Assembly: GCF_017983445.1 (NCBI RefSeq)
Contig: NZ_JAGOBJ010000001.1
Location: forward strand, 189,632-253,631
Origin: Halomonas sp.
GTDB taxonomy: Bacteria; Pseudomonadota; Gammaproteobacteria; Pseudomonadales; Halomonadaceae
Length of the DNA: 64,000 bases
Reading direction: 5' to 3'
The first letter of the stretch is position 1, and every line of letters starts with the position of its first letter. The notes beneath the pieces were generated by a model. The model saw nothing but the letters and a program-made list of their open reading frames with translations. It ran no database searches and was not told the origin of the DNA. Both the position numbers and the translations under genes were made by a program. Positions 23,572 through 35,058 of this stretch are shown here, piece by piece.

Positions 23572-23616
23572 TTGTAACCTCCGCTTTCGAAATGCACCGA
23601 AAGGAGAGGGCTGTGT

Positions 23617-23733
23617 ATGAGCAAGTTAAAAAAGATGCCTGAGTTTAAAACCTAAGGCGTAAGAACGAGAGTGCTAGGAAACCCATGATTTCTAAGACTA
23701 TTTGGACTGTAGCAAAGCAAAATGGCCTCTTTA
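23617..23733 (+). pseudogene. Decayed CopG/BrnA-type antitoxin gene
   Basis: An AGGAGAGGG ribosome site and ATG begin MSKLKKMPEFKT, then a TAA. One base out of frame the sequence continues as the rest of the usual N-terminus of CopG-type antitoxins: RE-C-stop-ETHD, then stop-DYLD-C-SKAK. The family pattern is EREFWETHDS.DYLDWSKAK, so both tryptophan codons have mutated (TGG to TAG and to TGT). The frame is broken by one inserted base and several stops. Recognised by eye from memory of the family; no ribbon-helix-helix C-terminal part remains. Confidence 0.55.
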
Positions 23734-23758
23734 TCGAAGCTGAAGCCCTCAACCACGG

Positions 23759-23809
23759 CTATCTAACTCCGCTTGCCGGAAACTTTGGATGAAAACTCAG
23801 CTCAGCCAT
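23759..23809 (-). pseudogene. Truncated RelE/ParE-type toxin gene
   Basis: The ATG overlaps the antitoxin stop (ATGGCTGA) and reads MAELSFHPKFP, the usual N-terminus of RelE/ParE toxins paired with TIGR02574-type antitoxins. After about 11 family-like residues it runs into unrelated sequence and a stop. The rest of the gene has been lost. Confidence 0.5.
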
Positions 23810-24031
23810 TACGAGGCTTAAGTTGGCCTTTAATCTCTTCCCATGACAGCCTTTGAACATTTCCAGTTTCAAGCTCATCAAGCCGCTGTTCAGCAAGAGA
23901 GAGCCAAGCAGCATCGACCCCTTCCCTTCATCGTGCTGAGTTTCAAGGCTAGAAATCAGCCAATGGTCAAGTAAAGCTCGATCATTGGCTGAAAGCTCTT
24001 TTGTCTCTTGAATGACTTGTTCGAGTCTCAT
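23802..24031 (-). pseudogene. Frameshifted addiction-module antitoxin gene (TIGR02574-like)
   Basis: Starts MRLEQVIQETKELSANDRAL, the typical N-terminus of the putative addiction-module component family. It breaks after HDEG and resumes in another frame as VDAAWLSLAEQRLDELETGN then VQRLSWEEIKGQLK and a stop at 23802. The break coincides with a five-base tandem duplication (GAAGG GAAGG G); removing one copy would restore a 74-codon gene. So this is a young inactivation. The paired toxin remnant overlaps its end by eight bases. Confidence 0.65.
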
Positions 24032-24150
24032 GATCGTGGAACCTCTTCGCATTAGCAGATTTACTCTTTAATTCTAACATGCCGGAGACCGGGGAGACGG
24101 CTTAAAGCAAAGCACACGGGCGACGAGCTGCGTAGTGGGTTGGCTTCTTA

Positions 24151-24368
24151 GTGTGTACACCCAGCATGGGCATGAACTAATGAGGTGAAAGTCCTCTGTA
24201 GGAAGATCACCGCTTGCTGGGCTGAATCAGCTTAGTAAACGACAACTACTAGCATATGGCAAAGGCAAGCCGCGAGACCTTGTCTGGAGGAAGCCCTAGC
24301 AAAACTGTGAGCTGACGAATAAGAAGATCATACGAGGCGTAGGCTGATGGCGAGTTGGCACAAGTGAA
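24151..24368 (+). mobile_element. Group II intron 5' fragment (domain I)
   Basis: Begins with the GTGTG 5' splice-site signature and continues with elements typical of bacterial group II intron domain I: the CCAGCATGGGC stem, AGGTGAAAGTCCTC, CGACAACTACTAGC and a GGCGTAGGCTGATGGC segment. There is no reverse transcriptase reading frame and no domain V/VI; the copy stops where the IS1380-like fragment begins. Called from pattern memory; the exact class was not determined. Confidence 0.55.
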
Positions 24369-24516
24369 TCGCCCCGGGTATTCTAGACACCCTGTAGGCT
24401 CTTTGGTCTGCCCATAGCAGAAGCAACCCAGCATCAGAGGTGATGTGGCCGCCGGAGAAGTCGGCTTCAACTTGGCAGCGCAAGAGTGGCGAGAAGGCCT
24501 GTTTTTCAGGTATCAT
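24369..24516 (-). mobile_element. IS1380-family transposase N-terminal fragment
   Basis: Minus-strand reading frame starting MIPEKQAFSPLLRCQVEADF then SGGHITSDAGLLLL, which matches the N-terminal signature of IS1380-type transposases (ADFSGG.ITSDAG.LLL). Only about 50 residues remain before fusion with the intron fragment. No inverted repeat or catalytic part is visible. Confidence 0.6.
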
Positions 24517-24629
24517 TTTGCAAGCGGCTGTTCGTGCTTGGTGTGTTGGTTAAGATATTGAAATAATAGATTTTTTATCCGATTTCTTTTATGCTCCGTG
24601 AAAAGTTCGGCTAGTGGTGCTTCAAATTT

Positions 24630-27383
24630 CTACTGTTTTCCTTCACTCCAACCAGACATCATCAATTCAGTAAAGTCGCGGCGTGATAGTACATTCGAAC
24701 AGTCACGCCAATCTTTCTCCGATGGAGACATGGTTTCTGTGTAACGAAGGTCGAATCCGTTGGCTCGCTTCTGAGCGTTAATGTACTCGTCTATTTTTTC
24801 GCCCATGGTTTCGATATCCTCAATCCATTCATCGCGAATGGTGTCGGGTAGTGAACCAAACAGGTTGTAACGGTCTTGCATACGCTCTGAAAGCTTGACG
24901 TAAACTTTCTCATCTACGGTTTGTTCGTTAACGAGATTCAGCATATCGACTTTTTCACGGACCTGTCCAAAGCGTTTGATGCGACCAATGCGCTGCTCTA
25001 AGCGAGTCGGGTTCCAAGGCAGGTCGATATTGATCAGAGTGCCCAGCGTCTGAAGGTTAAGGCCTTCGCAGGCTGCATCGGTGGCTACCATGATTTCGAG
25101 CTGATGCTCGGCCACCATGAGTTTAAGTGTTTCGCGCTCGATATTTACGCTGTCACCTTTCTGATAAAGGCGGCTTCGACCGGCTCCGGCATACAGACCA
25201 ACCGCCTGGTTGGGATAGCGTTCTGCGAGTGAATCAGCAACCCATTTCGCAGTGTCGTAATACTGACTGAAAATAATGACGCCAAATTTCAGCCACTTTT
25301 CCTTTTCCAGGTAATGAATTACAGCGTTGAGTTTGGGGTCTTCTTCAATGCGCTCAAGCCGGGCGATCATTCGTTCCAGAACGGCAATTTCATCCGGGCT
25401 TTCGGCCTTAACTTCTATGATTTGCTCGTCACTTTCTTCACGAACAGTTCGGCCTTCCAGCAGCATTCGAGCCGTGTTTAATCCGGCAGCAATACTTGAG
25501 CAAATTCGTTGCTCCATCAGGTTCTTCATAAACCCGCTGCCTTTGCCACTTTGGGCAAGGGCTTTACCGAAGTGTCTCGCTTCGGCGTAGGCTTGCCTGA
25601 AGTCTTCGCTTGTCCGCAGCGCTTTGCCCTCGAACAAGCTGTTAAATTGGTGAACCTCCTTCGATAATTCCCGGTCGGGATGCAAGTCGACGCCTATGCG
25701 AGGCAGAAGCCCGGCATCCTCAAGCGTTACACGTTTACGTAAGACGACATGACGGATAAAGGGATTTTCACGCTGAAAAAAACTTGCACCCGAGATATTT
25801 CTATCCAATTCATCTTCAAGGTATTCCAGGGAGTCATCTGACAGATCAGAGAGCGAGTTATTAATGTCCCACTTGTCATTCTGATTAATTAGTCCAAGAT
25901 CCTGACGAAGCGAACTGAATAAGCGCCGTGCATACTGATCGTTGGTGGAATCGACGACTGGCAGTGGTGAGCGAAGCAGTTCCCAGGCGAAGCTCGGCTC
26001 GGTAACGCGCTGTTCACCTGATAAAATGGGCAGCACTTCTTGTGGGCGATGCCATTTAGCAAAGTCGTTACCAAGCACGAAATTACCGCTGCCCTGGTGC
26101 AAAATGCCAATTAAATCCCACAAATCCTCGGACTGGGTTTGAATAGGTGTTGCCGTACCTAAAATTACATGGTCTGATCGCGCAGCGATTTCCCGCATGA
26201 AGGTGAGTAATTCATTTTGTGTGCCAGCATTTTTACCGAAGCCTTGCCGGCTTCTCGCTTTATGTGCTTCATCCAAAATTGTCACGCCAAAGCGCAACCC
26301 CAAAAGATACTGCTTTTCCAATGAGTCACGCATCATCAGGCCGGTAGATACAATCCCCACGCGAAGCGGGCACTTTGCAATGTGCTCTTGTCCAGCAGGA
26401 GAGATAACTCGTCCTTCAGAATCCAGCCAGGCTTTTTTTTGGGTTTGCCAGCGGGCACAGGGAATTCCCAGCTTATCAATCATTTCAACTTGCCACTGCT
26501 CGCAGAGCGTGGCAGGGGTAAAAATAATGACGGGCTTGCGCCTCTTGTTCCCTCTGTCGCTTAGCAAGCACAGCGAAAGCGCTGCAGTGGCCATCGACAG
26601 GGTTTTGCCAAGGCCTACCTCATCGGCAATCAATAAACGCACGATACCGTGATTGTGGTAGTGGCGAATGCATTCAGTGACAAATCCTTGTTGCCAGGGC
26701 TGCAAGGAAAAGCCTTGGCGATAAAGCGGCGATTCAATCAACGCGGCGGGTGCAATGTCATCGTCTTCGACAATATCTTCAAACAGAACCTCTCTGCGAT
26801 AGCCACGGCGCTTCACCTCGCGGATCACCGCTTCAGGCAGTGGACGTGCAGCGTTCCACAAAAAGTCGAATTCCTGCTCAATCCACTGCACACCTTCCGG
26901 CGATTCGTCTTCCCACAAGATTTCATAGTGACGCTGCCAGCCACTGCTGGTTTCGTTCATGGAGCCAATGAAGCCTATTTTCCTTCCCTCTGCCAGCTCA
27001 ATAACGCCTGCTTTGCCGTGCAGAAAGCCACAAATGCTGTCGGGTGCGACACGGATGACCTGGCCATGTTTAGCAAGGAAGCTGTCCAAGCTGCGATAGC
27101 GGTCACGGTTGAGCAGGCTTTCGGCTTCAATATCGCGTTCATTCCAACGGCCGATCATCTTGGATTCGCGTAACTGAGCCACCTTCAGATCGTCGGGATG
27201 GATATCCACATTGCAGACGATCTTTACATCCGGGATAGACTCAATCAGCTCGTTGGCTACTTCAAACAACGAGCTGGTAAAGTAACCGGCAATGCGCTTA
27301 TAACTGCGAGCACCTTTAAGGTGCTCCAACAAGAAGCTACTGTCGAGCCTGTGGGTGCGCGATGAAAGTCGACGAATGCTCAT
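24630..27383 (-). CDS. PLD-SNF2 family helicase of a defence operon
   Basis: 917-residue protein. The N-terminal part (about residues 1-200) is a phospholipase D-like domain with one HxK motif (HGK, H122-K124, with Glu at 129 in place of the usual Asp) and GFIGSMNET. Then comes an SF2/SNF2 helicase: Walker A ADEVGLGKT (K260), DEAH box at 371-374, GTATPIQ motif III, ATDAACEGLNLQ and the motif VI LEQRIGRIKRFGQ. This combination occurs in phage-defence loci as the DNA-translocating, possibly DNA-cutting subunit. It is the last gene of the minus-strand operon, 75 bases after the DUF1156 gene. Its target and nuclease activity are untested here. Confidence 0.85.
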   Translation of the reverse strand: MSIRRLSSRTHRLDSSFLLEHLKGARSYKRIAGYFTSSLFEVANELIESIPDVKIVCNVDIHPDDLKVAQLRESKMIGRWNERDIEAESLLNRDRYRSLDSFLAKHGQVIRVAPDSICGFLHGKAGVIELAEGRKIGFIGSMNETSSGWQRHYEILWEDESPEGVQWIEQEFDFLWNAARPLPEAVIREVKRRGYRREVLFEDIVEDDDIAPAALIESPLYRQGFSLQPWQQGFVTECIRHYHNHGIVRLLIADEVGLGKTLSMATAALSLCLLSDRGNKRRKPVIIFTPATLCEQWQVEMIDKLGIPCARWQTQKKAWLDSEGRVISPAGQEHIAKCPLRVGIVSTGLMMRDSLEKQYLLGLRFGVTILDEAHKARSRQGFGKNAGTQNELLTFMREIAARSDHVILGTATPIQTQSEDLWDLIGILHQGSGNFVLGNDFAKWHRPQEVLPILSGEQRVTEPSFAWELLRSPLPVVDSTNDQYARRLFSSLRQDLGLINQNDKWDINNSLSDLSDDSLEYLEDELDRNISGASFFQRENPFIRHVVLRKRVTLEDAGLLPRIGVDLHPDRELSKEVHQFNSLFEGKALRTSEDFRQAYAEARHFGKALAQSGKGSGFMKNLMEQRICSSIAAGLNTARMLLEGRTVREESDEQIIEVKAESPDEIAVLERMIARLERIEEDPKLNAVIHYLEKEKWLKFGVIIFSQYYDTAKWVADSLAERYPNQAVGLYAGAGRSRLYQKGDSVNIERETLKLMVAEHQLEIMVATDAACEGLNLQTLGTLINIDLPWNPTRLEQRIGRIKRFGQVREKVDMLNLVNEQTVDEKVYVKLSERMQDRYNLFGSLPDTIRDEWIEDIETMGEKIDEYINAQKRANGFDLRYTETMSPSEKDWRDCSNVLSRRDFTELMMSGWSEGKQ

Positions 27384-27458
27384 TGCTGCGGAATCTCCAT
27401 CCTTGGTTGCTACTCAACTGATCGTTTCATTGGCTTCTCATCTTTATTGAAACTTTTT

Positions 27459-30400
27459 TTACTGGCCAAGGGCACGCATATTCTTCAGGCGCGCACCTAA
27501 CACTTCAGCAGCGTCGCGAGTGGCCTTTTCTGGCGCCTTCTTCTCAATAAATGTCAGCATGTCGATCAGTATCGGTCGCACTTCCATAAAGTCTGGCAAG
27601 TCCGCCTGCAACTGACTGATGACAGTCTGTGGCTCTTTCTCATTGAGTATTTGCTGCAAACCAATAACTAGGTGGCCAAGCCAGGTGGAGCCGATTTCCG
27701 TGCTATCTGTCAGGTCACGAGAGGCAAACTCGGGGATCCATTTCAGCTGCGCCTTGTTGGCCGTCATATTGCTCATTACCCGGCCGTAGTCTTCAACTCG
27801 GAAGGCTTTTGCAAAGTTCTGGTAATTATCGAGCTTCGAGGCACCAGTGGTTTCGATATCCAGCATGCGCAAATAAAAGCGCTGAATACCATTTATTTTT
27901 TGCCAGGTATCAACCGACAAACCTTCCGGTACCAGCAAGCTGTTGGCGGCTTCAGCAGCTTGTTGCACGATTTCATCCACAACCGTTACTTCGCCTTTGG
28001 TGCGTGGCCTCAGAGCAAAACTTGTGACGTCCTCACCGCCAATATGGGTATAAGAGGTCAGCACCTTAAGAGCTGCTGCGTAACCAGCCATTTGCAGATC
28101 TGAATCGTTAAAGACGGGCTCACCCAGTTTGTCTTTCACCTCATCGTTCAGGTGCATCATGGTTTCGATTTGGCGTTTAACCTCAGCGCGGACAGCAGGT
28201 AACAGCCGCTGCTTAAAGCCTGCGTTGTCACCGGCAGGCCGCTTGCGCAACATTAAAATGACCGTGCCTTGTACGTAGCCGCCTTTTTTCAGCTCGGTGC
28301 TGGTCTCCGTAGCGATGTACCAGGCACCTACGACTTGCAGTCCAGCAGCCCAGAAAATACCGATCATGTCTGACCAAACGCCGGTATCCTGATGGGTGAA
28401 CATCACGCATTGCATGCCGTTGTCAGGCATATGGTCGGCCATAGCTTTATAGGCGCTAACCATACCTTTTCGGAAGCCTTCATCCGAGCCCTTGATGGCT
28501 AACGCGCGGCGGGAATCCCAGGTCCATTCATCGAATGGCTTTGGCGGATTTCTACGCAGCCAGGCAATGAAGTACTCGGTGATTTCATGATAATGAACCG
28601 CATCGGCATAAGGTGGGTCAGTTATGTATATGTCGTTATTTTCGGTTACTTTATCGCTACTCTTTGTTTCAACGGCAGCGTCTGCATAAATTGGATGGTT
28701 TTGATAGCTCTGAACAAACTCATGATCAAAAAATGACCTGTTTGCCCAGTTGTAGAGCGTATTTAAGGCCTGATTAGAAAAGACGTTTGACGTGAAATCA
28801 CTTCCACCTCCGGAAGAGAACCTAACAATCCATCTAGACAATTTTGAACAGAAGTCTAATGTGCCACAGAATTCAGGGACAAGAGATGGATCATCAATTT
28901 CTTGGCGTATGAGAGCTAAAACCAATAAGTCCCGAGGGGAAAAAAACTGGTGCCAGTATCCCCAACCTCTTTCTCGAATTGGCTGATCGGTGTTGTATCC
29001 GCTCTCTATTGCCATGTCGGGAATGATTCCCGATCTCTGCCATTCTCCTATATTGTCGCAGAGGATCTTGTCGATGATTTTTTCACGCTCAAGATCTTCT
29101 TGTCTGACGGAGGTATAGAATGTGCCTTTTCTTGAGCTATCTATAGTGTTTTTCGTGATCCACTGAATGGCGTAAAGCCGTTCTTGAAATATGTCTGTAT
29201 CTCTAGGCTTAAATTCGCCTTTTTCCCATCGCCTCAATTTGTTCTTATAAGAGCCATCACTATCTCTGTAATCACCTCTCAGAGTCTTAATGGGCGTTCT
29301 GTATACCTTTTCATTTAGCTCATATACCATTTTCCCGTCTTGAACTGAGCCAACTTTTGCAGCCTCAACTTCTGCGTCTGAAACGCCCGATACAACTTCA
29401 ATATCAAACGACTTAAATTCATTGTTCGGTATGAGCTTTGCGACTGTATTCTGCCTCGGCGAAATGACCCAAGTGGAAGACAACGGAACCAGCCATCCCG
29501 TTTCGGGGCAGCGAGCCTCAATACAATATAAGAAAGCTTTTGCTCTGTTGCCTTCGGAATCGTGTTCGATTCCTAGGTCAGCTATTTTCTTTTCTACCTT
29601 GTTTTTGACAGTCAATTGCTTATTTATTATCGATTTATAGGCATCAGGTTTGGCACCAATAATATTAAACGTGCCCCAGGTAAGCATGCACGCGATTGGG
29701 TTCAAGTCAGACGCGTATACCTCACAACCTAATCTTGCTGCTTCAAATGGAATTGATCCGCCACCACTGAATGTATCGGCTACCTTTGGGCGATGTCCGT
29801 AGCGAAGCTGGCCAAGTTGCTCAACCAGCTCTTGATGGGACTCTGCTTTAATTCCAAGGTTTTGATAACGTCGATTAACGCTGGACCAAATATGCGCGTA
29901 AAGCCAATCCTGCTTTACTTCCTCTGGCCTTTTGCACAGCCTGGCCTTTGCCTCATAGCCATCAAGAGTGTCCAGGTATTGGTGATAAATTGTTAGCTTT
30001 TCGCTTTCTTCAATATCACGACGCCAGCGCAGCTTTAAGCCCATAGCATCGCTGTTAATCGGAAATTGAAGGGCGTCTACATCACTAAAATTTGCATCTG
30101 TCGCTTTGACATTATGGCTAAAATAATCCCAAGGATTATGCAGCTGAATGCAACTAGCGATTTCTGCGGGCTTAATGTCATTTTGAATGAGCGCGCGCTT
30201 GGCAAGGCTTTCAATATCAAAGCCCATCAGCATTTCGAATATTTCGAGATCTTTTTCAATGTCTTCGGTTTGAGGCAGGAGTGTGCCTAACACTACTGAT
30301 CGAACGAGGATAAGAGGCTTTCTGCCTTTCCAATAAGAGCCAAGTGAAGTCAGCGTTTGACCAGGGCCGGCTTTTCGTTCTTTTTGCGCTTCAAATGAAA

Positions 30401-30473
30401 TTTTTTGTGCAGGATATACCGCTTCAATGAGTGCGGGCGCATCCTTCAGCGCGAGTGGAGTTAATTCTACCAT
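27459..30473 (-). CDS. DUF1156-type DNA methyltransferase of a defence operon
   Basis: 1004-residue putative adenine DNA methylase. The S-adenosylmethionine motif is VADTFSGGGSIPFEA (231-245) followed by ASDLNP, and the catalytic motif IV is DPPY at 619-622. About 360 residues lie between motifs I and IV. A Cys-ribbon-like stretch (CIEARCPETGWLVPL, 317-331) retains part of a zinc-binding pattern. In this family the enzyme presumably marks host DNA. Its ATG follows directly on the TAA of the DUF3780 gene, so the two are translationally coupled. By eye, the middle of the gene (about 28.6-30.3 kb) is clearly richer in AT than either end. Confidence 0.85.
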   Translation of the reverse strand: MVELTPLALKDAPALIEAVYPAQKISFEAQKERKAGPGQTLTSLGSYWKGRKPLILVRSVVLGTLLPQTEDIEKDLEIFEMLMGFDIESLAKRALIQNDIKPAEIASCIQLHNPWDYFSHNVKATDANFSDVDALQFPINSDAMGLKLRWRRDIEESEKLTIYHQYLDTLDGYEAKARLCKRPEEVKQDWLYAHIWSSVNRRYQNLGIKAESHQELVEQLGQLRYGHRPKVADTFSGGGSIPFEAARLGCEVYASDLNPIACMLTWGTFNIIGAKPDAYKSIINKQLTVKNKVEKKIADLGIEHDSEGNRAKAFLYCIEARCPETGWLVPLSSTWVISPRQNTVAKLIPNNEFKSFDIEVVSGVSDAEVEAAKVGSVQDGKMVYELNEKVYRTPIKTLRGDYRDSDGSYKNKLRRWEKGEFKPRDTDIFQERLYAIQWITKNTIDSSRKGTFYTSVRQEDLEREKIIDKILCDNIGEWQRSGIIPDMAIESGYNTDQPIRERGWGYWHQFFSPRDLLVLALIRQEIDDPSLVPEFCGTLDFCSKLSRWIVRFSSGGGSDFTSNVFSNQALNTLYNWANRSFFDHEFVQSYQNHPIYADAAVETKSSDKVTENNDIYITDPPYADAVHYHEITEYFIAWLRRNPPKPFDEWTWDSRRALAIKGSDEGFRKGMVSAYKAMADHMPDNGMQCVMFTHQDTGVWSDMIGIFWAAGLQVVGAWYIATETSTELKKGGYVQGTVILMLRKRPAGDNAGFKQRLLPAVRAEVKRQIETMMHLNDEVKDKLGEPVFNDSDLQMAGYAAALKVLTSYTHIGGEDVTSFALRPRTKGEVTVVDEIVQQAAEAANSLLVPEGLSVDTWQKINGIQRFYLRMLDIETTGASKLDNYQNFAKAFRVEDYGRVMSNMTANKAQLKWIPEFASRDLTDSTEIGSTWLGHLVIGLQQILNEKEPQTVISQLQADLPDFMEVRPILIDMLTFIEKKAPEKATRDAAEVLGARLKNMRALGQ

Positions 30474-31094
30474 TTAATATTTGTCTCCAAATAGGTCCAA
30501 ATAATGAACATCCGGCTCCTGTATTTGATTGCGCACAATTTTGCGTTCGCGGGGTTTTAGCTGCTCGCTTTGTGCAACATCACCCAGCGCATGACGCAAG
30601 GCGAGGCGCCAACCTTTTTCACCATCGTTAATGCCGCCGGTGCTCATGGCGGTCATACCAAATAACCACCATCTTTCTTCAGGCCTGAGGGCCAGCCAGT
30701 TGCGCACAGCCACCGGTATTTTTTCCATATCCATGCCTTCCACGGCCCAAGCCAATATGCACAGCTCTTTACCCAGCAGCCGATCCACAACGTTTTCACC
30801 GACTTTCCAGGAGGCGGTTTTTACATCGTGGTTTTTGAGCCGGGCATTAAAGGTGCGTTGTACCTCTGCGCGGATATCTGTCCAGCGCGGACGATCTAAC
30901 AGCACGCGATCAATCACGGCGAATTCGTCGCTGTGTGCCTGTAGGCCAAGGTACTCACTGATTTGTACCTTGCCGGTGTTGGCCTTCGGAATAATCACTT
31001 TAAAATGGTGAGGGTCGCTGGTGGCAGGCACACCAAAGCCCAGCGTTGCATAGTTCACCGCTGTTTTGGTTGTCTTTGATGGTGCCTTTGCCAT
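30474..31094 (-). CDS. DUF3780 protein of a defence operon
   Basis: 206-residue soluble protein of unknown function. The family feature I recognise is RPEERWWLFGMTAMSTGG at about residues 136-153, followed by GEKGWRLALRHAL. No catalytic motif, signal peptide or membrane segment is visible. Proteins of this family are found almost only beside DUF1156 methylases and DUF499 ATPases, so it is probably a structural or specificity subunit. It lies 29 bases after the DUF499 gene and touches the DUF1156 gene. Confidence 0.75.
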   Translation of the reverse strand: MAKAPSKTTKTAVNYATLGFGVPATSDPHHFKVIIPKANTGKVQISEYLGLQAHSDEFAVIDRVLLDRPRWTDIRAEVQRTFNARLKNHDVKTASWKVGENVVDRLLGKELCILAWAVEGMDMEKIPVAVRNWLALRPEERWWLFGMTAMSTGGINDGEKGWRLALRHALGDVAQSEQLKPRERKIVRNQIQEPDVHYLDLFGDKY

Positions 31095-31123
31095 ATTTCT
31101 TGCCTCTTGCTTGAAAGCATCGC

Positions 31124-34100
31124 TTACTCGTCTTGAACGATATCGCCAGATTTCAACTCAATGCCAACTAATTTGGCGAACTCTTTGGCTTCAAAGCCAT
31201 TTTCAAAGTCGATACCGTCTCTGACTGCAATCGAGACATTGGCATCTGCTTCGTTCAACACATCCCGCAGGCTATTTACCGTGGCTTCGATCATCGCGGC
31301 GGTAATCTGACGCTCGCCGAAGCGAATCCCCACGGTGTTTTCACCTTCGCCAATCTCAATGCGTACACCTTTAAAGCGGGTGTTTGCCTGGTCTTTGAAA
31401 CGGTTAATGACCGTGAAGACCTTTTCCGTGGTATCGAGTGGAACACGTTTGCCGCTGTTTAGTCGCGCGGGCTTGGTGTCATCAATCTGAACGGTCTTGT
31501 CGCTGCTATGCGGTATCTGGAAGTCGGCGGTCTTGGTTGCTTCGCCCGATTTTGCATAAACCAGCAAACGAGCGGCTTCGGAGCCTACCTCGAACGACGC
31601 CGTATAGGGTTGACCGTCTTTTGGATTCGAGCCATCCAGCGTGTAATACATCTCGGCTTTCGGTGTGCAGTGCAACGTGACCTTGCGCTTATCGGCAGAA
31701 GGTTCAATCTGGTGTCTGACTTTAAGGTCAGCCACCCAGCGTGTGGCGGGGCCAGTCTCGTATTTGCCCGTAGGATCCGCCACCTTGAAATAAAGAGTAC
31801 CCTCCGCTGTGTTGAAGTTTTCCAGATCATCAATTTTCGGATCTGTCTCAAGTACTTCCGGTTTAGTCGAGTAATAAATAACCGGGCTATCGCCAGCGTT
31901 ACGTGGCGTCAGGCTAATCTGTGATTCACCCGTATCTGGACTGGTACTCAACAGCGAAACGTTGACGCTAGTTTTCTCTTTCGGGAACGGGCCTTTTTCA
32001 ATGTACCCGTCTTCACCCAAACGCCAGCGGCCTTGTTTCAGGGCTTCAGTTTTCAATGTGTCCATGCCGCCGCTGCCCGGCATCCAAGGCCAGCCTGGAT
32101 TGCATTTGGCACGGTTAACGACATCCTTCCATGGGGTGCGACGATTACTTACACCGGAAGGCCACAGCTCAGATTCGGCCATGGCAAAATACTGGCCGCA
32201 GTCATCTTTCAGGTCGGCCGCCAGTTTGTAGTTGGCTCTTGGGTCGGCCATGAGGCTTTCAATTTGAGCCTCTGCCGATTGGTCGCCTTCGCCCACTTTC
32301 AAACCATTGTCGATGGTGACTTTGAGCAGCCGCTCAGAGCCGTCAAGTTCATCGATGCCGGGGAAAAGAATGGTGTTGTAGGCGGCAGACAGCGCTTTGG
32401 TAAAGCGGCCTTCTGCTTCTTCCAGTCGGTCGCGGGCTTCCTCAAACAAGGTGTCACCCGCTTTGAGACGCTTTTCAATTTGTTCGATGGCATAGAGCTC
32501 ACGCAGGCGGTCTTCCACGGCGTCAGCCATGATGCTGTCTTGCCCGGTGAGAACCAGCAGGTTGTTTTTCTCCTGCTGGAATTCAAAGAAGTTGTTGAGC
32601 TCGCTTGGAGGCACCTTGCCATCGGGCTTGATCACGATTAAGACGCGAGGACCGCTCAATTTGAGTTCATCCATGCGTGGCAGTACCTGTAATTCCTGAT
32701 AGACGTTACGACGATTTGGCTGAAGGATTCCCTTGAGCCGATTAATCAACGCCTGATCAATTTTTGGCTGCGGTATTTCTTTCGCGTTGCGGTCAATCTG
32801 GCGCGACAGGTTTTCGGTTTCTTTAATGAAGAAACGCTGGTCTTCGCGGTGCAAATACCAGGCTTGTTCGCGCAGCTTCTGAAGCGCATCAAGGAATTCA
32901 TCCGCTTTGCGGTTGGGCGCAGCCAAGAATTCAATCACTTCGCTTTCTGACAGGCCTATACGCCCACCCACTGCACGCGAGAGTGACGATGCCAGGAGCA
33001 AGATCATTAGTTGACTGGCTGCATCGTTGCTTTGCTCGGCATCAATACTTTCCGAAATAGCATCTCCCTTATCGGCGATGTCTCGGGTGACTGCAGGAAT
33101 AAGTTTTGGCGAGATCCGTTCAATCTCATCCTTCACCTGTTCATCATTGAGGTCGAGGTGCTGTGTGCCGACTAGGAATACATCATCTGTCTGGCGTTGT
33201 TCGACGCTTTTCAGAAGGCGAGCGGTAAACTGCATCAAACCCCGCGTCTGACGGAAGCCTTCGTTTTCTTTAAACAGGGCAACTAAGTGTTTAAACGACG
33301 GGTGAAAGGGGTAGGTTTCTCTAACCTGCTCGGCGATTTGCTCCATACTTGATGCAATAATGTATCCGCCATCTTCCGCCTTTTTGATTTGCTGGGCATA
33401 CTCTTCGGCGACATCGCTGATGGTTTGCTGATCGGGCAGCTCATCAATCAGTCTCTTTTTGAGGATTTCATAGATTTCATTTCCCGATAGCTGCACCGGG
33501 GTAATGGTCATCGACTGTCTGCGGGTCTCCTGCTGCAGGTTAGAAATGGCTTCTTTCAGAGCTTTTGTTTGGGCACCATAACTGCTAGTCAAGTTGGCAA
33601 TGATGATACAGCAGTTCGGGAGTTCAAGTGCCGCACTCATTAAGGTACTTAGGCTGTATACAACCATATTAGCCAATGTGCCGGAACCATAGATTTGGGT
33701 GCTGGCGTTATCTAAATACGGTGGCAATTCGTCGATCATAATCAGCGTTGGAGTGTTGCCGATAATTTCTTTCCATTTTTGCTGGTCAACAGCTTTGGGG
33801 CCGTTGATCCAGTGCGTCTTAATTTTCTCGGCCTCGTCAAGCTGCGTGGCAATTTCTCCCCAGATGTAATTGTCGGGGTTGTTGCGGCCGTTAAAGGCAG
33901 CAATTCGAGCATTGCCAAAGTCCAGGCGCGCATTTAAATCAGCAGGCAAAACCTCAGGACGCAAATGGGCATATTTGGCGAGCAGGCCCAGCGCGATCAT
34001 CATGTGGGTTTTACCGCCCCCCATGGCTTGGGTGAGTTCAAACACCGCCTGGTCTGACTTGCCGGAAAGGCGAAGCATGCCTTCGCGGAAAAGCTGCTCC

Positions 34101-34249
34101 ATGCCGTGGGTAACATAGTTGCGAGAGAAGAAGTCTTTGCCGTCACCTGCGTCGTTAATGAGATCAGCCAGGCTCTCAACCCCTTGGCTCATCCGGTAGT
34201 CCTGAATGACAGGATTAAAACGACACGCCTGCTTAACTGTCTTGATCAT
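31124..34249 (-). CDS. DUF499 AAA-like ATPase of a defence operon
   Basis: 1041-residue P-loop ATPase. Walker A is TQAMGGGKTHM (GGGKTH, residues 77-82) and Walker B is TLIMIDELPPYLD (about 167-179). A sensor-like NCCIIIANLTSS follows. The long middle part is helical with charged coiled stretches (about 590-640). The C-terminal third contains beta-rich segments, one with YYTLDGSNP (868-876), like the chitobiase C-terminal/Ig-like fold. This is the large ATPase of DUF499-DUF1156 loci and probably powers or gates the system. Its ATG overlaps the stop of the ribbon-helix-helix gene by ATGA, so the two are coupled. Confidence 0.85.
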   Translation of the reverse strand: MIKTVKQACRFNPVIQDYRMSQGVESLADLINDAGDGKDFFSRNYVTHGMEQLFREGMLRLSGKSDQAVFELTQAMGGGKTHMMIALGLLAKYAHLRPEVLPADLNARLDFGNARIAAFNGRNNPDNYIWGEIATQLDEAEKIKTHWINGPKAVDQQKWKEIIGNTPTLIMIDELPPYLDNASTQIYGSGTLANMVVYSLSTLMSAALELPNCCIIIANLTSSYGAQTKALKEAISNLQQETRRQSMTITPVQLSGNEIYEILKKRLIDELPDQQTISDVAEEYAQQIKKAEDGGYIIASSMEQIAEQVRETYPFHPSFKHLVALFKENEGFRQTRGLMQFTARLLKSVEQRQTDDVFLVGTQHLDLNDEQVKDEIERISPKLIPAVTRDIADKGDAISESIDAEQSNDAASQLMILLLASSLSRAVGGRIGLSESEVIEFLAAPNRKADEFLDALQKLREQAWYLHREDQRFFIKETENLSRQIDRNAKEIPQPKIDQALINRLKGILQPNRRNVYQELQVLPRMDELKLSGPRVLIVIKPDGKVPPSELNNFFEFQQEKNNLLVLTGQDSIMADAVEDRLRELYAIEQIEKRLKAGDTLFEEARDRLEEAEGRFTKALSAAYNTILFPGIDELDGSERLLKVTIDNGLKVGEGDQSAEAQIESLMADPRANYKLAADLKDDCGQYFAMAESELWPSGVSNRRTPWKDVVNRAKCNPGWPWMPGSGGMDTLKTEALKQGRWRLGEDGYIEKGPFPKEKTSVNVSLLSTSPDTGESQISLTPRNAGDSPVIYYSTKPEVLETDPKIDDLENFNTAEGTLYFKVADPTGKYETGPATRWVADLKVRHQIEPSADKRKVTLHCTPKAEMYYTLDGSNPKDGQPYTASFEVGSEAARLLVYAKSGEATKTADFQIPHSSDKTVQIDDTKPARLNSGKRVPLDTTEKVFTVINRFKDQANTRFKGVRIEIGEGENTVGIRFGERQITAAMIEATVNSLRDVLNEADANVSIAVRDGIDFENGFEAKEFAKLVGIELKSGDIVQDE

Positions 34250-34443
34250 ACTTTACGCTCTTCAGGTTGATCTGATTCTTGGGTTTGCTCTATGGCTATA
34301 CCGTTTTTCTCGCAATGACCCCGAATCATCACTTCTATCATGTTGGCGATAGAACGGTGCTCCGCTTGCGCAGCAGCTCGCAGCGCTTCCTTTAAGCCAG
34401 GATCGACTCGGATGGTAAGCGTCGCAGTTTTGGTGGTAGCCAT
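34246..34443 (-). CDS. Small ribbon-helix-helix regulator, first gene of the defence operon
   Basis: 65-residue protein MATTKTATLTIRVDPGLKEA then LRAAAQAEHRSIANMIEVMI, a clear Arc/MetJ/CopG ribbon-helix-helix pattern (TLTIRVDP strand, then two helices). The C-terminal tail is charged. ATG chosen after GGGAGAG; the frame extends eight codons further up without support. It overlaps the DUF499 start by ATGA. Directly before it are direct repeats of TGTACTG ten bases apart, overlapping a possible -10 box. It is therefore probably an autorepressor that controls the entire defence operon. Confidence 0.75.
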   Translation of the reverse strand: MATTKTATLTIRVDPGLKEALRAAAQAEHRSIANMIEVMIRGHCEKNGIAIEQTQESDQPEERKV

Positions 34444-34468
34444 TACACTCTCCCAAGATGACTGCAAA

Positions 34469-34509
34469 TGTACTGCACTGTACTGTATTGCGCTTTATAG
34501 CTCAATCAA
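34469..34509 (-). promoter_or_regulatory. Defence-operon promoter with TGTACTG repeats
   Basis: Two direct TGTACTG repeats (34469-34475, 34479-34485), ten bases apart, and a degenerate third copy TGTATTG at 34484-34490. Ten-base spacing is one helical turn, as expected for ribbon-helix-helix dimers. On the minus strand a possible -35 TTGATT (34504-34509) and -10 TACAGT (34482-34487) are separated by 16 bases, so bound repressor would cover the -10 box. Confidence 0.45.
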
Positions 34510-34621
34510 GGGAACGTCGTCTAGTACCACTTGATTCGCTCACTAGAACAGATCATCTAGCGGCGAGACCATATAGCTGTGATTTGTTTGGGCAGTGGGT
34601 AGAGATATATTTCTCAATTAC

Positions 34622-34887
34622 TAGGGCCTGTTGAAGTTTCACTCACGGCCGCGCTGGTGCCCGTTTTTATTCGCGGCAAGGCAGGAGGAGAGACGTTTGG
34701 TTATTCCAAATGAACGACGGCTAACGCCGCCGCGGATAAACACGGGCCCTGCCCTACGGGTTGCACCACAAAGCGCGCCATAAGGCGTTGCAAAGCTTGA
34801 AAAGGGGGCCACTCTTACCCGCGTTTTGCGCCCTGTCTGGCGCTTTATGTTGTAACGCGGTTTGCTATGAAACGTTAACAGATCCTA
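34622..34887. mobile_element. MITE-like element with 19-base inverted ends
   Basis: The ends AGGGCCTGTTGAAGTTTCA and AGGATCTGTTAACGTTTCA (read inward) match at 15 of 19 positions and are each bordered by TA. The element is about 265 bases and has no gene. Inside is a second, longer hairpin: GCCCGTTTTTATTCGCGGC near 34663 pairs with a near-complementary copy near 34730-34750. The TA borders suggest an IS630/Tc1- or IS5-type parent. Confidence 0.5.
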
Positions 34888-35058
34888 ATGAAATGCTATC
34901 CAGAAAAATAAGCACATGGCCCCTTGAGCCTACCAGAAAAACGCGCACTACAGGTCGAAATGTCTTATTTTGCTGAGTTTTGATACCGCAAAATACGCTG
35001 CTTGGGAAAGCTATGGGAGGATGTCAGCAGGTTCCAAGATGTCGTCAGACCGCGGCCT

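What the first reader, a model, noticed from the sequence alone, without database searches (positions are those of the whole stretch)
24630..34443. Five-gene putative phage-defence operon: RHH, DUF499 ATPase, DUF3780, DUF1156 methylase, PLD-SNF2 helicase
The sequence shows a compact minus-strand operon: ATGA overlap between genes 1 and 2, a 29-base gap, a TAA-ATG junction, then a 75-base gap. The products are a ribbon-helix-helix protein, a large P-loop ATPase, an unknown 206-residue protein, a DPPY DNA methylase and a PLD-SNF2 helicase. It sits between decayed mobile elements and a MITE-like element, in sequence that looks less GC-rich than the flanks. From memory, DUF499/DUF1156/DUF3780 genes cluster in defence islands, and a helicase-methylase-ATPase (Hma) system has been predicted computationally. 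How these parts act together is not known to me. No REase, PglZ or DUF1998 gene is present, so it is neither a normal restriction system nor BREX or DISARM.
Basis: partly seen in the sequence, partly recalled or inferred. Interest (0 to 1): 0.85.

Follow-up and report, generated by a model that had tools for sequence, protein, structure and literature searches.

The report
BREX-related phage-defence operon with swappable targeting
A horizontally acquired five-gene operon predicted to protect a bacterium from viruses belongs to a recently described restriction-like family; comparison with relatives suggests that its DNA targeting sits in one exchangeable part of its methylase and that it carries its own small gene switch.

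Summary
The operon is real and at the stated coordinates. All four large proteins pass the NCBIfam 'anti-phage' equivalog cut-offs. The set DUF499 ATPase / DUF3780 / DUF1156 N6-methylase / HKD(PLD)-SNF2 helicase is the 'Type-2 BREX-Related (BR)' system published in January 2026 (PMC12839542): a new member of a known kind, not Hma, BREX or DISARM. 'No REase' misleads: the PLD/HKD domain is the predicted nuclease.

Comparison adds three points not in that paper's main text. (1) The methylase centre is exchanged between otherwise near-identical operons (38% identity in TRD-b against 97% in the helicase for one pair); trees from this segment and from the methylase C-terminus conflict. This points to the methylase as specificity subunit. 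(2) The RHH gene is kept in 52 of 68 testable loci, and a 16-bp site about 33 bp before it, with at most 1 mismatch, in 46 of 54: a dedicated repressor-operator switch is likely. (3) The DUF3780/methylase junction is a cargo slot, with DarTG in 22 of 76 loci; the window's slots are empty.

The operon lies in an 11.5-kb stretch absent from a same-genus genome. No function was tested.

The parts
24630..27383 (-). PLD(HKD)-SNF2 helicase, 917 aa; predicted nuclease-translocase effector (PLDc_2 at aa 19-176, about 26856-27329)
   Evidence: NF042964 1203 bits, cut-off 1100; Pfam PLDc_2, SNF2, Helicase_C; HxK..G[S/T]xN in 47 of 47 intact homologues
27459..30473 (-). DUF1156 N6-adenine methylase, 1004 aa; motif I FSGGGS at aa 235, DPPY at aa 619
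   Evidence: NF042963 1335.8 bits, cut-off 1000; motif positions; DPPY in 58 of 58 intact homologues
28641..29648 (-). Exchangeable segment of the methylase (aa about 276-611; edges not mapped exactly), inferred target recognition domain
   Evidence: Identity collapse against near-identical operons; incongruent trees on aa 430-612; bimodal identities on aa 480-611
30474..31094 (-). DUF3780 protein, 206 aa; four strands and five helices in the model; suggested modification reader
   Evidence: PF12635 257.9 bits; NF042961 285.2 bits, cut-off 200; model pLDDT 71.7; reader role is the published suggestion
31124..34249 (-). DUF499 AAA+ ATPase, 1041 aa, with FnIII-like segment near aa 854-898
   Evidence: NF042962 1528.8 bits, cut-off 1200; CHB_HEX_C_1/Fn3_assoc; Walker A pattern in 67 of 68 intact homologues
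34246..34443 (-). Ribbon-helix-helix protein, 65 aa, overlapping DUF499 by 4 bp; inferred autorepressor
   Evidence: RHH_1 22.5 bits, cut-off 20.5; present in 52 of 68 eligible loci
34462..34477 (-). Candidate RHH operator TGCAGTACATTTGCAG, 34 bp upstream of the RHH ATG
   Evidence: At most 1 mismatch in 46 of 54 loci, against 0.15 of 54 expected from random windows; only exact copy in the own genome
34477..34505 (-). Weak candidate promoter TTGAGC-17-TACAGT whose -10 touches the operator
   Evidence: Read by eye; NOT found by the consensus scan; inference
24266..24487 (+). Group II intron fragment flanking the operon
   Evidence: RF02001, 37.1 bits, gathering 32
34622..34887. MITE-like element upstream of the operon; ends look partly inverted by eye (sequence)
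   Evidence: Recurs in same-genus genomes at up to 90% in full length
23572..35056 (.). Stretch holding the operon; 29 bp stand in its place in the same-genus genome G417
   Evidence: Alignment to L093; its first 68-218 bp are shared with two other same-genus genomes (L087, L088), so the exact left edge is open

Best explanation
A restriction-modification-like defence system of the Type-2 BREX-Related kind, carried on an acquired chromosomal stretch. The DUF1156 methylase marks host DNA at one N6-adenine motif chosen by its central TRD. On unmarked DNA the same methylase acts as the specificity subunit of a complex with the DUF499 ATPase, probably with DUF3780 as modification reader; the SNF2 motor with its N-terminal HKD nuclease then translocates and cuts. 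Sequence identity is changed by swapping the TRD while the other parts stay fixed. The first gene, an RHH protein whose frame overlaps that of the ATPase, represses the operon through an operator at the promoter, keeping the nuclease low until needed. Shown here: gene set, intact motifs, TRD exchange, conserved RHH and site, presence/absence at the locus. Inferred: methylation, cutting, the shared specificity subunit, the role of DUF3780, repression, phage defence.
For: All four large proteins exceed the NCBIfam equivalog cut-offs. Published family description and R-M-like model. Catalytic motifs kept in homologues. TRD exchange: between window and L004, L005, L006, 40-aa windows of the methylase fall to 21, 35 and 26%, while full 40-aa windows stay at 88% or more in the helicase and 78% or more in DUF499; over 58 methylases, rank correlation with helicase identity is 0.845 for the methylase C-terminus and 0.222 for TRD-b; TRD data (aa 430-612) reject the clade window+L004+L005+L006 (p-AU 1.7e-77) that C-terminal data support at 98, and C-terminal data reject window+L035+L064+L071 (p-AU 1.1e-7) that TRD data support at 99. 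If the effector read sequence by itself, such swaps would leave the host unprotected (inference). RHH and site conservation. [quoted passage not shown] RptR, a small first-gene repressor of a Type I R-M island with embedded DarTG2, binds repeats overlapping -10 (PMC12255303, passages, outline and discussion).
Against: No activity has been measured; no methylation motif or phage effect is known for this operon. The D of the HKD motif is not kept (E 26, T 16, D 3, A 1, K 1 of 47). No strict sigma-70 promoter was found. 16 of 68 loci lack the window-type RHH, so it cannot be essential to the family. The TRD tree has long branches (L004, L006, L028; the tool warns of L004 meeting L028) and both trees are quick searches. 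The methylase N-terminus and TRD-a are also partly decoupled from the helicase (rank correlations 0.533 and 0.254), so the exchanged segment may be wider than the TRD. The published model lets the variable C-terminal RRM of DUF499 share in recognition; I did not test that. Structure searches gave no confident match for the methylase or DUF3780 models.
Confidence: 0.7

Rival explanations
1. BREX-like exclusion without cutting: the complex blocks phage replication at unmethylated sites and the PLD domain binds DNA without cleaving.
For: Domain-level kinship with Type-3 BREX is published; the Asp of the HKD motif is variable.
Against: His, Lys and G[S/T]xN kept in 47 of 47 intact homologues; 83% of published Type-2 BR taxa keep the HKD fusion.
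Confidence: 0.15
2. Modification-dependent (Type IV-like) defence: DUF3780 recognises modified phage DNA and the methylase is only a decoy or regulator.
For: DUF3780 is fused to reader-type domains in some published loci and to DUF4357 in the E. coli locus opened here, with an Mrr-type REase downstream.
Against: Repeated exchange of methylase TRDs in otherwise constant operons points to target choice by the methylase.
Confidence: 0.08
3. The RHH protein is the antitoxin of a toxin-antitoxin pair rather than a dedicated operon repressor.
For: Weak, mostly sub-threshold matches to ParD-like, TacA and FitA-type antitoxins.
Against: No small toxin gene recognised next to it in the ORF lists of the window; the overlapping partner is the DUF499 ATPase; conserved site just upstream.
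Confidence: 0.06

Closest known systems
Type-2 BREX-Related (BR) system (Rakesh and Krishnan, NAR 2026, PMC12839542; outline, passages and sections 30 and 35 part 1 seen)
   Same: Same four core proteins: DUF499 ATPase, DUF1156 N6-methylase with nested TRD, standalone DUF3780, HKD-SNF2 helicase; FnIII-like domain in the ATPase.
   Different: RHH gene with operator, TRD exchange by recombination and DarTG cargo are not in its main text (0 occurrences of RHH, ribbon-helix-helix, DarT, recombination); it does note that TRDs in general diverge fast. Supplements not seen.
Hma / Type-1 BR system (PADLOC, PMC8565338; passages seen)
   Same: Helicase, methylase and ATPase, later equated with DUF499-centred BR systems.
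   Different: Hma is a three-gene operon; window proteins score far lower on Hma profiles and the window carries PLD and DUF3780.
BREX with PglX (PMC11341690; passages seen)
   Same: Methylase as shared specificity factor for marking and defence; ATPase, methylase and helicase kinship with Type-3 BREX.
   Different: No PglZ in the operon; HKD helicase instead.
RptR-controlled Type I R-M island with embedded DarTG2 (PMC12255303; outline, passages and discussion seen)
   Same: Small first-gene regulator, conserved site near the promoter, DarTG2 inside an R-M operon.
   Different: RptR is all-helical and binds TAGCTA; here RHH family and another site; the R-M type differs; the window has no DarTG.

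Membership tests
Type-2 BR system | DUF499 AAA+ ATPase | tested here: met
   NF042962 1528.8 bits, cut-off 1200
Type-2 BR system | DUF1156 N6-methylase with TRD nested between motif I and DPPY | tested here: met
   NF042963 above cut-off; motif I at 235, DPPY at 619, variable segment between
Type-2 BR system | Standalone DUF3780 gene in the locus | tested here: met
   PF12635 257.9 bits
Type-2 BR system | N-terminal HKD nuclease on the SNF2 helicase, in place of TUDOR | tested here: met
   PLDc_2 at aa 19-176; no TUDOR hit at E 0.1
Type-2 BR system | FnIII-like domains (53% of taxa) and RRM at the C-terminus of DUF499 | tested here: inconclusive
   One FnIII-like stretch found; RRM not modelled
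Type-2 BR system | DUF499 in the Type-2 clade of the published tree | not tested
   Published alignment not held
Type-2 BR system | Anti-phage activity with self-methylation | not testable with these tools
   Needs experiments
Hma / Type-1 BR | HmaA, HmaB and HmaC as best-matching families | tested here: not met
   HmaA 117.8, HmaB 72.4, HmaC 155.6 bits against 1500.7, 1503.2, 1570.7 for the own families
BREX | PglZ in the operon | tested here: not met
   No PglZ match among listed hits of the four proteins; the rest of the genome was not scanned for it
DISARM | DrmB (DUF1998) in the operon | tested here: not met
   No DUF1998 match; DrmD matches far below cut-off (187.1 against 610)

The most novel reading that the evidence does not exclude
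Type-2 BR systems are a regulated, re-targetable restriction platform. Specificity resides only in an exchangeable TRD of the methylase, which also guides the HKD-helicase effector. A dedicated RHH repressor with its own operator times expression. Intergenic slots let toxin and defence modules such as DarTG be loaded under the same switch.
Probability: 0.5. Interest if true: 0.62.

Novelty: new member of a known kind. Interest (0 to 1): 0.45.

Why it matters
The family has been described from gene neighbourhoods and domain analysis. The natural TRD exchanges give ready-made comparisons: operons that are nearly identical apart from target choice. One experiment can then test whether the methylase guides the effector. 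The RHH-site pair gives a handle on how such systems might avoid self-damage on entering a new host. The cargo slots parallel DarTG2 embedded in Type I R-M, suggesting a general architecture for layered defence.
Full report
OBSERVATION. The minus-strand operon exists as described: RHH, DUF499, DUF3780, DUF1156 methylase, PLD-SNF2 helicase, all frames intact, with the stated junctions. Family matches are strong, that of the RHH protein just over its cut-off. The DNA around it is mobile: a group II intron fragment and a MITE-like element that recurs in other genomes of the genus. In the same-genus genome G417 the two flanks are separated by 29 bp instead of the 11,485 bp of 23572-35056; two other genomes of the genus share the first 68 and 218 bp of that stretch, so its left edge is not settled. 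DUF499 relatives at E 1e-30 occur in 4 of 82 genomes searched in the genus (own included); the other three are 57, 54 and 26% identical. DUF3780 occurs in 2 of 398 genomes sampled from the phylum, own included. The genus is probably Halomonas in the wide sense: a match in G473 has nearly the same coordinates as DUF499 on the Halomonas sp. KO116 plasmid; this is inference.

WHAT IT IS. Only one paper in the library holds 'DUF3780': PMC12839542. I saw its outline, passages and sections 30 and 35 part 1. It defines the Type-2 BREX-Related system with these four core proteins, in 1120 taxa, DUF3780 in 98%, HKD-helicase in 83%, FnIII domains in 53%, and proposes an R-M-like mechanism. The window operon meets the features that I could test, the FnIII/RRM feature being inconclusive. 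Elsewhere: the RHH-DUF499-DUF3780 segment matches in 17 of 5426 E. coli genomes, and the one opened has all five genes, next to tRNA-Phe with an integrase; a DUF3780 relative lies on 20 of 72,556 plasmid records, in 1 of 50,697 phage records and in five viral contigs, all five with methylase, helicase and DUF499.

TARGETING. Eighty related loci from named genomes, the best of 112, were compared. Against L004, L005 and L006 the window shares 92.6-94.5% in DUF499, 91.7-95.6% in DUF3780, 96.0-96.5% in the helicase, but 72.1-76.2% in the methylase, where most of the loss lies between motif I and DPPY. In 58 intact methylases of 76 hits, TRD-b (aa 480-611) averages 39.9% pairwise identity against 77.2% for the C-terminal part. 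TRD-b identities are bimodal: of 1653 pairs 1451 lie below 45%, 48 at 45-50%, 4 at 50-55%, 150 at 55% or more; 21 groups at 60% single linkage. The window's TRD-b is nearest L035 (72%; helicase 76%) and L064 (67%; helicase 71%), and is 38% identical to L005 (helicase 97%). Trees on 20 loci conflict with strong support both ways, with long-branch warnings in the TRD tree. This is exchange of discrete recognition modules. The N-terminal part is partly decoupled too, so the exchanged unit may be larger. An effector with its own fixed sequence specificity would be self-destructive after each exchange, so the simplest reading is that the effector follows the methylase, as PglX guides BREX (passages). 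That step is inference, and the paper's view that the DUF499 RRM helps recognition is not excluded.

REGULATION. Of 68 loci with the DUF499 start and at least 260 bp upstream, 52 have the RHH gene, 47 of these with a 4-bp overlap. Sixteen lack it; three of these (Pseudomonas L063, L064, L067) and, outside this set, the KO116 plasmid have another small gene there; of three tested, two show weak ParD similarity below cut-off and one (KO116) none. The site TGCAGTACATTTGCAG lies about 33 bp upstream of the RHH ATG, within 1 mismatch in 46 of 54 loci and within 4 in 54 of 54; random windows of the same loci give 0.15 and 0.4 of 54. It occurs exactly once in the own genome, with one further match at 2 mismatches. 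The best promoter reading is below the scan's threshold. RptR is a functional precedent with a different fold and site.

CARGO. Between DUF3780 and the methylase, 27 of 76 loci (window included) have 200 bp or less; 22 hold DarT and DarG, 1 DarG alone, 8 an AlbA/Schlafen-type protein, 7 MazF-, PIN- or Uma2-type genes, 11 other content. DarT and DarG pass the NCBIfam cut-offs in the one representative tested, L023. Between methylase and helicase, 49 of 60 have 200 bp or less, 7 hold the three-gene PADLOC candidate PDC-M28, 1 an AlbA-type gene, 3 other content. The NAR paper reports nuclease backup effectors but its main text does not mention DarT.

VERDICT. A sound first-stage observation of an operon that is now a known kind. 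The added value is comparative evidence on targeting, regulation and modular cargo. Mechanism confidence 0.7; none of it is tested at the bench.

Noticed in passing
L097:5383-6516 (Proteus phage vB_PvuS_Pm34, KY420199.1): A phage record carries a contiguous piece of such an operon: DUF499 residues 852-1041 (95% identical to the window) and DUF3780 residues 1-170 (79%), beside lysis genes. It may be a captured remnant or a decoy against the system.
   Followed up: partly
L023:8532-10256 and 21 further loci: DarT and DarG genes sit between DUF3780 and the methylase in 22 of 76 loci, parallel to DarTG2 in Type I R-M.
   Followed up: yes
L081:15221-18371: Three-gene PADLOC candidate PDC-M28 between methylase and helicase in 7 of 60 loci.
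   Followed up: partly
L096:17365-25282 (E. coli ECCRA-119): DUF3780 is fused to DUF4357 and an Mrr-type REase gene overlaps the end of the helicase gene.
   Followed up: partly
window 34622-34887: MITE-like element of about 266 bp, with copies across the genus, one in the own genome.
   Followed up: partly
L003 (Methylophaga lonarensis): Methylase and DUF499 reading frames are interrupted in this contig; decay or draft sequence error.
   Followed up: no
L105:5623-5811 and L063:6640-6822: A second type of small protein occupies the RHH position; no confident Pfam match.
   Followed up: partly
window 23759-24052: 97-aa ORF beside the operon that looks to me like an addiction-module antitoxin remnant (recalled resemblance); no NCBIfam match.
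   Followed up: no
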